Position numbers and translations under genes: made by a program. Of a DNA stretch of 55,931 bases, positions 52,959 to 55,621 are shown in pieces. Within the stretch, counting starts at the first letter, position 1, and each line of letters begins with the position of its first letter. The notes under the pieces were generated by a model that was not told the origin of the DNA, did no database searches, and saw only the letters and a program-made list of their open reading frames with translations. Source of the DNA: a virus; the IMG/VR virus record IMGVR_UViG_3300010354_000113, positions 1 to 55,931 of that record. One strand, written 5' to 3'.

Positions 52959-54833
52959 ATGCCTGCAGTTAATCAACGTCAACGCCGTCTCTTTGGGATG
53001 GTAAGAGCTGCTCAGAAGGGTGAGAAGCCAGCATCCCCTGAGGTTGCTAAAATTGCTGCCTCCATCTCTCCCGCAGATGCGAAGAAGTTTGCCAAGACTA
53101 AGGAGAAGAATCTCCCCGAGTCTGCAGTTCCTGGTAAACCTGCCGAGCGTGTAGGTGCTCTGACTAATATTGACATCCCTCAGGATGAGCGTGAAGCGGC
53201 AAAGCAAAGACTTCTTAAGAAAGCAGCAGAGAAGCGTGCTGCCATGAAGAAAGAAGAGGTCGAAATCGAAGAGGGTATGTCTCTCAAAGACTTTAAGGCA
53301 AACCGCAGAAAACTGAAGCGTAAAGAAGCTTCTGACGATGCCAAGAAGAGAGGGCATGTTGGTAAAGAATGGTATAACAGTGGTAGGACCTATTCTCCTG
53401 ATGAGGCGAAGAGTGGTCGTGAAAATATGCCTGATCATGAAAGAAGCACAAGACATCGTAGTGCTATGGACCCTGAGGGTGATGATGATATGTACTCAGC
53501 AGATAAGACTAAAAACCCCAAGAAACTTCGCAAGCAAAAGGCAATGGGTGAAATCAAGAAAGAGGGTTATCTTCCTGAGGAAGAGTCCGACCGTCTGAAG
53601 GACCGTCGTATGGAGCGTGGTGGTATTGATGGTAACAATCGTTATTCCTCAAAACCATCTGCAGGCAAACCCGAAACTGCTGCTGAAAAGAAAGCACGCG
53701 AAGACAAGCATAGAGAAACTACAAAGAAAGCACTTGATATGGTAAGAAACTCCATTACTGCTAAGTATGGCAAGGGTGCTCTGATGAATTCTTTTGATGC
53801 TGAAGGCGAGACAATCCAAGAGGATGAATATCGCAAACTGATGGCACAGGAGCGTAAGGCGGAGAAGGATAGAGAAGCAAAGCGTGCTGGTCGTAAAAGT
53901 ATTACTCCTGGCAAACTTGCTCAGAGCACTGGGAATGACTATGCTGATAGCAACATCAAGTTTCATGCGAAAGTGACTGGAAAGAAAACAACTACTGAAG
54001 AAGTAATTCAGGAGCGTGGTGACTTCTGGCATCCAGACCCTGAGCAAGACCGCAAACTTGGTGGTCCTGGTGCTAACCAGCGTGCTCGCGAAGATAAGGC
54101 TGCAGCATCCAAACCTAAGGAAGACCCCAAGAAACTGAAGAAGGGCGAGTCCTATATGGATTATGCCAAGCGTCAGTCTTCCTATAAATCAAGTGGCAGC
54201 ACTGCTACCGAGCGTCTGAATAAACTGGGTGCTAACATTAAGAAGAAAGAAACTCTGGGCGACAAGATTAAGCGTAAACTGGGCAGTGCAGTTGACCGTG
54301 TTGCTGGTATCAAGAAAGAAGGCACCATCTCATATAAGGATTTCATCGCAGAAGGCAACCGCACTGGTCGCATGATGCAGAAGTCTAAGACTCAAGTTAC
54401 TGGTCACATTTCTGCTGACCGTGGCGATGATGAGAAGGCAAACCGTGAGAAGCGTAAGGGTCTTGAGAAGGACCTTAAGAAGCATGGTATCGGTCACAAG
54501 AAAGGTGTGGGCGAGTATAAGTATGGTAGCGGCGAAACTGGTCGTGAGGTTTCATACCAGACTTCCAAACCCGAGAAGATGTCTAAGCGTCGTTTCGGTA
54601 AGGTAATGCGTCGCCTTGGTCGTAAGCATGGTCAAGAATCTGTTATCACAAAAGATGCTGACAAATCAGCAAAACTGCACTATACTGAGAAAGGTAGTAA
54701 GGCAAAGTCTGACTCAATCGGTAAGACTAAAGCGGGCAAGCATCCCGAAGGTTACGGTGAAACATCTGGCACCAAGGTGAGAAGCGGCAAACTTCCTAAG
54801 AAAACAACTAAAGGAGCATACCATTATGGCTGA
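52959..54833 (+). CDS. Lys-rich DUF3008-like protein with internal CTS and DUF3293-like domain
   Basis: 624 residues, very rich in Lys, Glu, Arg and Ala, mostly disordered-looking. Residues 1-50 ('NQRQRRLFGMVRAAQKGE', 'SPEVAKIAASISPADAKKFA') match DUF3008. Two sites fit the T4 prohead protease gp21 rule (Ile/Leu-x-Glu, then Gly/Ala): I103-E-E105/G106 and I463-A-E465/G466. The second lies in ISYKDFIAEG (457-466), which resembles the T4 internal-protein capsid-targeting sequence MKTYQEFIAEA. Right after it, residues about 480-565 follow the DUF3293 pattern (N..R..L...L...G......G.Y.....EVSY.T.....RRFGKVMRRLGR.HGQESVI). Cleavage at 465 would release a 159-residue basic protein with that domain. 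I infer an internal or scaffold-associated head protein. The 3' end overlaps the next gene by eight bases. Confidence 0.75.
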   Translation: MPAVNQRQRRLFGMVRAAQKGEKPASPEVAKIAASISPADAKKFAKTKEKNLPESAVPGKPAERVGALTNIDIPQDEREAAKQRLLKKAAEKRAAMKKEEVEIEEGMSLKDFKANRRKLKRKEASDDAKKRGHVGKEWYNSGRTYSPDEAKSGRENMPDHERSTRHRSAMDPEGDDDMYSADKTKNPKKLRKQKAMGEIKKEGYLPEEESDRLKDRRMERGGIDGNNRYSSKPSAGKPETAAEKKAREDKHRETTKKALDMVRNSITAKYGKGALMNSFDAEGETIQEDEYRKLMAQERKAEKDREAKRAGRKSITPGKLAQSTGNDYADSNIKFHAKVTGKKTTTEEVIQERGDFWHPDPEQDRKLGGPGANQRAREDKAAASKPKEDPKKLKKGESYMDYAKRQSSYKSSGSTATERLNKLGANIKKKETLGDKIKRKLGSAVDRVAGIKKEGTISYKDFIAEGNRTGRMMQKSKTQVTGHISADRGDDEKANREKRKGLEKDLKKHGIGHKKGVGEYKYGSGETGREVSYQTSKPEKMSKRRFGKVMRRLGRKHGQESVITKDADKSAKLHYTEKGSKAKSDSIGKTKAGKHPEGYGETSGTKVRSGKLPKKTTKGAYHYG

Positions 54834-54972
54834 GGTGAAAATGTGGGAGGGTGACGAATTCAAGTGCAAGCACTGTGGAGTTACCCCTCCCAAGGGTCAT
54901 TGGAGACCTACAACTTGGTTAGAAAAGCATGAGGCAAACTGCCCTAATAATCCAGAGTTGAAAGAGCAATGA
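54826..54972 (+). CDS. 48-residue zinc-finger-like protein
   Basis: Begins at the ATG at 54826 with a strong Shine-Dalgarno (AAGGAG, 54811-54816), overlapping the preceding gene by eight bases, and its TGA overlaps the next ATG (ATGA). The protein contains Cys14-x2-Cys17, then His35-x3-Cys39: C-x2-C-x17-H-x3-C, a C2HC-type zinc finger spacing. Trp at 26 and 31 fall between the ligand pairs. It is probably a tiny metal-binding protein; possible roles include DNA binding or binding the neighbouring head proteins. No family name is claimed. The tight overlaps on both sides support it being real. Confidence 0.7.
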   Translation: MAEVKMWEGDEFKCKHCGVTPPKGHWRPTTWLEKHEANCPNNPELKEQ

Positions 54973-55316
54973 TTAGTTTCAAGGATTTTCACGAGAGTTA
55001 CAAAAAGAAAACACCAAAGACACCTGCAATCAATCCCCATCCTATGTCGGATGGAGAAAAGGATGTTAAGGAAGGTGCTGCCTGGACTCGTAAAGAAGGG
55101 CAAAATAAAGAAGGTGGACTTAATGAAAAAGGACGTAAGTCCTATGAGCGTGAGAATCCTGGAAGCGATTTGAAAGCACCCCAACCCAAAGGTGGTCCTC
55201 GTAAGAGGAGTTTCTGTGCTCGTATGAGTGGTATGAAAAAGAAACTCACAAGCAAGAAGACTGCTAATGATCCAGATAGCAGAATCAATAAGTCCCTTAG
55301 AGCGTGGAATTGCTAA
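54969..55316 (+). CDS. DUF6321-like protein
   Basis: 115 residues. Segments 'AWTRKEGQNKEGGLNEKGRK' (38-57), 'RENPGSDLKAPQ' and 'SFCARMSGMKKKL' (81-93), ending 'RINKSLRAWNC', match a family I recall as DUF6321, found in many phages and of unknown function. It is strongly basic. The N-terminus 'MISFKDFHES' is a weak version of the T4 capsid-targeting pattern (MKTYQEFIAEA), without a clean cleavage site. The start overlaps the preceding stop by four bases and the stop overlaps the next ATG by one, so it is part of a coupled group. It could be a DNA-associated internal head protein; that is inference. Confidence 0.72.
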   Translation: MISFKDFHESYKKKTPKTPAINPHPMSDGEKDVKEGAAWTRKEGQNKEGGLNEKGRKSYERENPGSDLKAPQPKGGPRKRSFCARMSGMKKKLTSKKTANDPDSRINKSLRAWNC

Positions 55317-55621
55317 TGAAATCCTACTCAGAATTCTTATCAGAAAGCGTCAACATCAAAGGCGACTTCAACGGTAATCTTTATATCAACTCTGCAGAGC
55401 AACAGCAAGTTGAAGAAAAGTATACTGCTGATATGGAATACAACGGTGAGTTGTATCGTATTGAGATGACCTATGAAGGTATGATTCCTGATAGGTTAGA
55501 GTTGACTGAGATGATTCAGTCTGAGTATCCTGGTGCAATTATTCAGAATGTGTATCCACCTTCAGGCGAGCGTAAAGTCCTAGGTGCCAAGAAGGTTTAT
55601 CATGATTCGGAATGGAGTTGA
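55316..55621 (+). CDS. Protein with T4 internal-protein-like N-terminus
   Basis: 101 residues from the ATG at 55316, which shares one base with the preceding stop (TAATG). A start four codons upstream (55304) is possible, but 55316 places 'MKSYSEFLSES' at the N-terminus. This aligns with the T4 internal-protein capsid-targeting sequence MKTYQEFIAEA (identities at M1, K2, Y4, E6, F7 and E10), and L8-S-E10 would be the cleavage point, with Ser rather than Ala or Gly following. The rest is acidic and beta-rich (YNGELYRIEMTYEGMIPDR, then YPGAIIQNVYPPSGERKVLG), about 91 residues after cleavage. I infer a candidate internal protein packaged in the head and perhaps ejected into the host. No homologue is recognised. 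Confidence 0.65.
   Translation: MKSYSEFLSESVNIKGDFNGNLYINSAEQQQVEEKYTADMEYNGELYRIEMTYEGMIPDRLELTEMIQSEYPGAIIQNVYPPSGERKVLGAKKVYHDSEWS

What the first reader, a model, noticed from the sequence alone, without database searches (positions are those of the whole stretch)
54327..55360. A possible set of capsid-packaged internal proteins with T4-type targeting and cleavage motifs
T4 internal proteins carry the N-terminal capsid-targeting sequence MKTYQEFIAEA, cut by gp21 after the Glu. Two nearby genes have look-alikes: ISYKDFIAEG inside the 624-residue protein (residues 457-466, ideal I-x-E/G site) and MKSYSEFLSES at the start of the gene at 55316. A third, MISFKDFHES at the start of the DUF6321-like gene, is weaker. 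They are grouped after gp16. T4 internal proteins are injected with DNA and can counter host defences, so these are candidates for injected effectors.
Basis: partly seen in the sequence, partly recalled or inferred. Interest (0 to 1): 0.8.

Follow-up and report, generated by a model that had tools for sequence, protein, structure and literature searches.

The report
Capsid-targeted SAM-destroying enzyme in marine phage
A marine cyanobacterial virus appears to tag a SAM-destroying enzyme, and at least one small neighbouring protein, with the same short 'load me into the capsid, then cut me off' peptide that phage T4 uses for its injected proteins, which suggests that ocean phages deliver a ready-made anti-defence enzyme together with their DNA.

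Summary
T4's capsid-targeting sequence (CTS) depends on residues 4 and 7 for targeting and on residues 8 and 10 for gp21 processing (PMC9026906). The 624-aa protein (ISYKDFIAE|G) and the 101-aa protein (MKSYSEFLSE|S) match at all four; the DUF6321 protein (MISFKDFHES) matches only the targeting pair. Chance is excluded for the first two. Nearly every SAM-lyase-domain homologue examined keeps the motif, and stand-alone homologues carry it at the true N-terminus (MKTYKEFIREA, MKTFKEFISEA, MKTFSQFMAEG). The predicted scissile tripeptide is [L/I/M/F]-x-E|[G/S/T/A] in 40/40 sequences.

New here: the domain released by that cut is a SAM lyase. Support is Pfam PF23780, four invariant ligand-contact residues, and Foldseek's top five PDB hits all being phage SAM lyases.

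Published virion proteomics supports packaging by homology. In S-CREM2 the five N-termini that best match a CTS profile all belong to virion-detected non-structural proteins, including the SAM-lyase homologue. In S-SCSM1 one of two does; the 101-aa orthologue was not detected.

Best reading: a T4-type internal-protein system whose cargo includes a SAM lyase, here embedded in a modular precursor. Packaging and cleavage in this phage, injection and SAM depletion are inferred.

The parts
52959..54833 (+). 624-aa modular precursor: DUF3008-like N-terminal module, several basic linker modules, CTS-like site, C-terminal SAM-lyase domain
   Evidence: orthologue S-SZBM1_194 covers 100% at 61% identity
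52959..53126 (+). N-terminal DUF3008-like module (residues 1-56); a stand-alone 69-aa relative is virion-detected in S-SCSM1
53265..53273 (+). I-E-E (res 103-105) before module GMSLKDFK; I/L at P3 in 7/7 distinct relatives; possible extra gp21 site (inference)
53571..53579 (+). L-P-E (res 205-207) before module E(E)SDRLKDRRME; hydrophobic P3 in all 11 distinct contexts; possible extra gp21 site (inference)
54006..54014 (+). I-Q-E (res 350-352) before module RGDFWHPDP; I/L at P3 in all 26 distinct contexts (21 I, 5 L); possible extra gp21 site (inference)
54327..54356 (+). internal CTS-like motif and predicted gp21 site ISYKDFIAE|G (res 457-466); all four functional CTS positions match (Y4, F7, I8, E10)
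54354..54830 (+). SAM-lyase domain (res 466-624), predicted mature fragment; ligand-contact residues G518, Y520, E530, Q559 (E560, S561)
54826..54972 (+). 48-aa Zn-ribbon-like ORF overlapping both neighbours; conserved in S-SZBM1 and S-WAM1; role unknown
54969..55316 (+). DUF6321 protein (115 aa), N-terminus MISFKDFHES: CTS targeting residues present, processing residues 8 and 10 absent; stand-alone relatives have fuller CTS
   Evidence: S-CREM2 ORF137, with C-terminal DUF6321, is virion-detected
55316..55621 (+). 101-aa protein (phrog_1742) with N-terminal CTS MKSYSEFLSE|S (nt 55316-55348)

Best explanation
This is a T4-type internal-protein (capsid-cargo) system of a marine cyanomyovirus, and its main cargo here is an S-adenosylmethionine (SAM) lyase. 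The aromatic pair of the CTS-like peptide (Y/F4, F7) docks the protein onto the prohead scaffold. The prohead protease gp21 then cuts after Glu at [I/L]-x-E|[G/S]. For the 624-aa precursor this frees the C-terminal SAM-lyase domain (from G466); for the 101-aa protein it removes the first 10 residues. The cargo stays with the packaged DNA and is injected with it. The SAM lyase would then cleave host SAM to homoserine lactone and methylthioadenosine, and/or bind the host SAM synthetase as the T3 enzyme does, disarming SAM-dependent defences (restriction-modification, BREX-like) before any phage gene is expressed. Shown: the motifs, their conservation, the domain's family, fold and ligand-contact residues, and virion presence of homologues. 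Inferred: packaging and cleavage in this phage, injection, enzymatic activity, anti-defence role.
For: (1) CTS match: T4 CTS function maps to residues 4 and 7 (targeting) and 8 and 10 (processing) (PMC9026906); the 624-aa and 101-aa motifs match all four. (2) Conservation: among the SAM-lyase homologues examined (53 distinct contexts plus about 30) nearly all have the motif directly upstream or at the ORF start; it stays when upstream sequence changes, and is N-terminal in stand-alone proteins (MKTFKEFISEA L311; MKTFSQFMAEG L088). (3) Predicted scissile site: P1 Glu 40/40, P3 L/I/M/F 40/40, P2 of 12 kinds, P1' G/S/T/A, the T4 gp21 L/I-X-E rule. Cyanophages have gp21, with comparable capsid-protein sites, e.g. 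NFLSE|AP in P-SSM2. (4) SAM lyase: PF23780 at 9.8e-8 in the window and 2.3e-19 in S-CREM2 ORF6. G56/Y58/E69/Q104 of Svi3-3 correspond to G518/Y520/E530/Q559, invariant 40/40 and aligned in T3 SAMase. AlphaFold pTM 0.71 with the motif disordered. Foldseek PDB hits 1-5 are 6zm9, 7ock, 6znb, prob 1.00. (5) Virion data: S-CREM2's top five CTS-scoring N-termini of 219 (SAM lyase, kinase, cytidylyltransferase, ORF13, ORF136) are all virion-detected; Fisher p=4e-5. S-SCSM1's NMNAT, MKSFLQFLKEA, is also virion-detected; combined p=5e-6.
Against: No virion proteome exists for this phage, and the record ends before gene 17, so its own gp21 is unseen. In the 624-aa protein the motif is internal; T4's proven CTS is N-terminal. 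The 101-aa orthologue scored high but was not flagged as a virion protein in S-SCSM1. The S-CREM2 authors note that their extra proteins might be CsCl carry-over. I saw the S-CREM2 N-termini before building the profile, although no S-CREM2 sequence was in it; the blind S-SCSM1 test alone is not significant (p=0.13). Foldseek E-values are modest (best 1e-3), and hhalign against T3 SAMase alone is insignificant. S-SCSM1 and S-CREM2 encode Dam-type methylases, so prolonged SAM depletion would have a cost to the phage.
Confidence: 0.68

Rival explanations
1. The motifs are real gp21 sites and scaffold-binding peptides, but the proteins are structural core/scaffold components of the prohead (like T4 gp67/gp68/IPIII) whose fragments help shape the head, not injected effectors. 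The SAM-lyase fold would then be a recruited, inactive core domain.
For: The 624-aa protein is very basic, modular and variable in linker length. Cyanophages lack gp67/gp68 (PMC2984593). It sits among head and neck genes. Several further [I/L]-x-E sites at module starts suggest a fragmenting core protein.
Against: G, Y, E and Q of the SAM-binding site are invariant in 40/40 homologues down to about 33% identity, which is not expected of an inert domain. The domain occurs stand-alone behind a CTS in many phages.
Confidence: 0.17
2. The SAM lyase and 101-aa proteins act inside the infected cell as ordinary late-expressed proteins; the motif is a general interaction peptide, and virion detection in other phages is contamination.
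For: The S-CREM2 and S-SCSM1 authors raise carry-over. The 101-aa orthologue was not found in S-SCSM1 virions.
Against: Carry-over would not pick out precisely the proteins with T4-type CTS N-termini (5 of the top 5 in S-CREM2). The strict processing signature (P1 Glu 40/40, P3 hydrophobic 40/40) points to a protease.
Confidence: 0.1
3. The look-alikes are chance or compositional, in Lys/Glu-rich proteins.
For: Total [I/L]-x-E count in the 624-aa protein is not above shuffled expectation (6 vs 4.2, p=0.22). The DUF6321 motif is weak.
Against:: position-specific conservation and rarity elsewhere.
Confidence: 0.03

Closest known systems
T4 internal proteins IPI, IPII, IPIII with capsid-targeting sequence and gp21 processing
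   Same: Same CTS chemistry at residues 4, 7, 8 and 10, same L/I-X-E cut rule, gp21 homologue in the relatives. T4 IPI is an injected restriction inhibitor and IPIII is needed on a particular host strain (PMC9026906, PMC9391042).
   Different: Cargo is unrelated in sequence and is a SAM lyase. In this phage the CTS is embedded inside a 624-aa modular precursor instead of at its N-terminus.
Phage SAM lyases: T3 SAMase (gene 0.3) and Svi3-3 (PF23780)
   Same: Family, predicted fold, and invariant G-x-Y, E, Q ligand contacts.
   Different: T3 SAMase is an early-expressed 152-aa protein without this signal. Here the domain follows a capsid-targeting and cleavage peptide.
S-CREM2 ORF6 'SAM hydrolase' detected in virions (PMC10665884)
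   Same: Homologous domain (40% identity to window residues 471-581), N-terminal CTS MKDFDSFLEE, found by virion MS. Its authors already suggested entry into the host against restriction.
   Different: Stand-alone N-terminal CTS, far from gp16. The authors' text on these proteins mentions no targeting sequence.
Phage P1 DarA/Hdf and SPN3US ejection proteins
   Same: Head-packaged anti-restriction or ejected proteins associated with head maturation.
   Different: Different families and targeting; giant phages use an S/A-X-E type rule.

Membership tests
T4-type internal (CTS) proteins | Aromatic at CTS residue 4 and Phe at 7 (targeting) | tested here: met
   624-aa, 101-aa and DUF6321 motifs all meet it
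T4-type internal (CTS) proteins | Hydrophobic residue 8 and Glu 10 (gp21 processing, L/I-X-E): 624-aa and 101-aa proteins | tested here: met
   Met for both and conserved in homologues
T4-type internal (CTS) proteins | Hydrophobic residue 8 and Glu 10 (gp21 processing, L/I-X-E): DUF6321 protein | tested here: not met
   H8, S10 in the window's gene; T4 IPI also lacks them at these positions and is cut further down
T4-type internal (CTS) proteins | CTS at the protein N-terminus | tested here: inconclusive
   Met for 101-aa; not met for the 624-aa protein itself, but met in its stand-alone homologues
T4-type internal (CTS) proteins | Presence in the mature virion | tested here: inconclusive
   Homologues of the SAM-lyase, DUF6321 and DUF3008-like modules detected in S-CREM2/S-SCSM1 virions; 101-aa orthologue not detected
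T4-type internal (CTS) proteins | Cleavage by gp21 | not testable with these tools
   Only the site and the existence of gp21 in relatives could be checked
T4-type internal (CTS) proteins | Injection with DNA | not testable with these tools
   Inference
Phage SAM lyase (PF23780) | Profile match above curated cut-off | tested here: met
   32.5 bits (35.2 for the domain alone) vs cut-off 28; several relatives above it, some just below
Phage SAM lyase (PF23780) | Conserved SAM-contact residues Gly56, Tyr58, Glu69, Gln104 | tested here: met
   Invariant in 40/40 homologues and aligned to T3 SAMase
Phage SAM lyase (PF23780) | Fold | tested here: met
   Model pLDDT 75, pTM 0.71; Foldseek top five PDB hits are SAM lyases, prob 1.00, TM up to 0.63
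Phage SAM lyase (PF23780) | Trimerisation and SAM cleavage to homoserine lactone + MTA | not testable with these tools
   Needs an enzyme assay

The most novel reading that the evidence does not exclude
Marine T4-like cyanophages share a general, so far unnamed CTS/gp21 cargo system that loads a changing set of enzymes (SAM lyase, kinase, NMN adenylyl-/cytidylyl-transferase, others) into the head. In this phage the 624-aa gene is a gp21-processed polyprotein that yields several internal peptides, with conserved [I/L]-x-E at the start of its modules, plus a SAM lyase from one precursor.
Probability: 0.4. Interest if true: 0.88.

Novelty: new variant of a known kind. Interest (0 to 1): 0.8.

Why it matters
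T4-like cyanomyoviruses are described as ubiquitous, and many of their virion proteins have no known function. A recognisable CTS lets one predict from sequence which proteins are carried in the head and injected, which turns a list of 'virion hypothetical proteins' into testable effectors. A pre-loaded SAM lyase would explain how such phages blunt SAM-dependent defence before any gene is expressed, and links the T3 strategy (destroy SAM) to the T4 strategy (inject a protective protein). No paper found in the held library describes CTS-type targeting in cyanophages.

Tried and rejected
Chance look-alike: rejected for two of the three motifs. Sheer abundance of L/I-X-E in the 624-aa protein is not significant (p=0.22), so the case rests on position-specific conservation. 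A conserved gp21 site before DUF6321 domains in general: rejected (P3 hydrophobic in only 55%). Reading GenBank 'similar to S-SM1 protein' notes as MS detection: not supported by the S-SM1 record, dropped. Profile search of A1 against PDB sequences: no hit; hhalign of A1 against T3 SAMase alone: insignificant; the Pfam model, the contact residues and the fold comparison carry that claim. A rank test over all S-CREM2 N-termini is not significant (p=0.22): only a minority of virion proteins carry a CTS. The structure of the 101-aa protein was submitted but not returned in time, so its function remains open. Annotation of S-CREM2 ORF12 as Cas9 was not supported by Pfam.
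Full report
OBSERVATION. The locus is the gp13-gp14-gp15-gp16 region of a T4-like cyanomyovirus fragment (G000 is only this 55,931-base virus record). Its closest isolate in the phage collection is Synechococcus phage S-SZBM1, which has the same gene order after gp16.

IS IT MORE THAN CHANCE? A pattern taken from T4 internal proteins finds 10 N-terminal hits in about 1650 ORF calls and none at about 4450 internal Met. The hits include T4 IPII and IPIII and the window's 101-aa protein. 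An 11-mer profile (trained on T4 and cyanophage N-termini, with neither the 624-aa site, S-CREM2 nor S-SCSM1 in it) places TISYKDFIAEG at 16.4. The non-N-terminal sites at that level are this one, its S-WAM1 and S-SZBM1 orthologues and one T4 protein. T4 gp23's known gp21 site, AFGSFLTE|AEIGG, also surfaces, at 14.2. Published mutagenesis of T4 IPIII assigns targeting to residues 4 and 7 and processing to residues 8 and 10 (PMC9026906). The 624-aa and 101-aa motifs match all four; DUF6321 matches only 4 and 7.

CONSERVATION. Homologues of the C-terminal module of the 624-aa protein were collected from viral contigs. Nearly all have a CTS-like peptide directly upstream or at the ORF start, with different letters but the same pattern: aromatic-x-x-F-[I/L/M]-x-E|G. 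Upstream sequence varies freely. Where the domain is a stand-alone protein, the peptide is the N-terminus: MRTFQEFLQLCE|G (P-SSM2_114), MKTFSQFMAE|G (L088), MKTFSEFMAE|G (L092), MKTFKEFISEA (L311), MKTFKEFLEE|S (L334). In a 40-sequence alignment P1 Glu is invariant, P3 is L/I/M/F in all 40, and P2 takes 12 different residues: the T4 gp21 L/I-X-E rule. When the CTS runs past position 10, a new [I/L]-x-E appears just downstream (e.g. MKTFQEFVVECYSIQE|T), much as T4 IPI has MKTFKEF followed later by ITEA. The 101-aa family keeps MK[S/T/N][F/Y]xxF[L/I/M][S/T]E in 80 of 80 loci, although its next 15 residues are also highly conserved. Stand-alone DUF6321 proteins elsewhere start MKSFSQYILEG, MKTFNQFIAEE, MKTFSEYLNED. 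One contig (L406) fuses CTS, SAM lyase and DUF6321.

WHAT THE CARGO IS. Residues 484-593 match Pfam S-AdoMet_lyase above the curated cut-off, as do several divergent homologues; S-CREM2 ORF6 matches at 2.3e-19. Gly56, Tyr58, Glu69 and Gln104 of the solved lyase Svi3-3 (PMC7877911) correspond to G518, Y520, E530 and Q559. They are invariant in 40/40 homologues and aligned in T3 SAMase. AlphaFold gives a usable core (mean pLDDT 75, pTM 0.71) with the first ten residues, the CTS, disordered. Foldseek's five best PDB matches are all phage SAM lyases. One of these entries (7ock) is titled as a SAM synthetase (MAT) in complex with the SAM hydrolase, so synthetase binding is a second possible activity.

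VIRION EVIDENCE FROM RELATIVES. S-CREM2 virions contain a SAM hydrolase (19 unique peptides), a kinase, a cytidylyltransferase and many hypothetical proteins (PMC10665884 Table 3). That SAM hydrolase is homologous to the window domain (40% over 115 aa) and begins MKDFDSFLEE. Ranking all 219 S-CREM2 N-termini by the profile, the top five are all virion-detected non-structural proteins, with a wide gap to the sixth; Fisher p=4e-5. ORF12 also has an internal LRFASFMAEA at residues 17-26. S-CREM2 ORF137, with a C-terminal DUF6321, is virion-detected. In S-SCSM1 (virion flags in MK867354; PMC9602691; bases 50,001-59,999 not read) only two of 263 N-termini score clearly. One is the virion-detected NMNAT (MKSFLQFLKEA); the other is the 101-aa orthologue, not detected. 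A stand-alone relative of the 624-aa protein's N-terminal module is virion-detected there. Combined p=5e-6. Caveat: I had looked at the S-CREM2 list before building the profile; S-SCSM1 was blind, and alone is not significant.

MECHANISM. Shown: motif, conservation, domain family and ligand-contact residues, gp21 in relatives (39% identity between the S-CREM2 and T4 proteases), virion detection of homologues. Inferred: scaffold docking, cleavage at E465|G466 and E10|S11, injection, SAM depletion, defence. A virion-delivered enzyme makes sense because restriction acts on entering DNA before phage expression; T4 IPI and IPIII set the precedent (PMC9026906, PMC9391042). Two open points are whether an internal CTS can target, and what the 101-aa and DUF6321 proteins do.

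POLYPROTEIN HINT. Three other module starts in the 624-aa family carry a hydrophobic residue at P3 before Glu in every distinct relative (26, 11 and 7 contexts), with varying P2. The background in the same proteins is 23% hydrophobic, 12.5% I/L. P1' there can be R or E, unlike classic gp21 sites, so this remains a suggestion.

NOVELTY. The CTS idea is T4's, and SAM lyases are known. The combination is what I did not find described: a SAM lyase riding a T4-type CTS, in at least 31 phage-collection records for the domain and hundreds of marine contigs, embedded in a modular precursor here, and with a signal that flags virion proteins in sequenced cyanophages.

Noticed in passing
T4 AF158101 18966-19130 (L431): T4 gp61.1, a 54-aa hypothetical protein, starts with a complete CTS (MKTFKEFIKED), suggesting a further T4 internal protein.
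   Followed up: partly
P-SSM2 AY939844: 158143-159417, 164043-164690, 169737-171458, 172902-173654: Four further P-SSM2 ORFs begin with CTS-like peptides (MKSFSQFLTET, VKTFKQFQEA, MKSLSQFIIET, VKTYQQFNES): candidate capsid cargo.
   Followed up: no
window residues 103-105, 205-207, 350-352 of the 624-aa protein: Conserved [I/L]-x-E tripeptides at the start of repeated modules: possible additional gp21 cuts and a polyprotein design.
   Followed up: partly
L175:7704-10313 (S-CREM2 ORF12): Annotated as Cas9 and virion-detected, but Pfam finds no Cas9 domain; it carries an internal CTS-like LRFASFMAEA near its N-terminus.
   Followed up: partly
S-SZBM1 80389-81486 and S-WAM1 151830-152894: ORFs of about 360 aa starting MRFRQFIIEA, probably the conserved cytidylyltransferase/NMNAT found in several cyanophage virions.
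   Followed up: no
window 54826-54972: 48-aa Zn-ribbon-like ORF overlapping both neighbours, conserved between the SAM-lyase and DUF6321 genes in S-SZBM1 and after the SAM-lyase gene in S-WAM1.
   Followed up: no
window 8255-28420: A single 6721-aa ORF matching virion-structural/baseplate-wedge PHROGs (phrog_701), unusually long.
   Followed up: partly
P-SSM3 L012:3501-4017: The SAM-lyase stretch matches in three pieces with no annotated gene, suggesting a disrupted or frameshifted copy in this phage.
   Followed up: no
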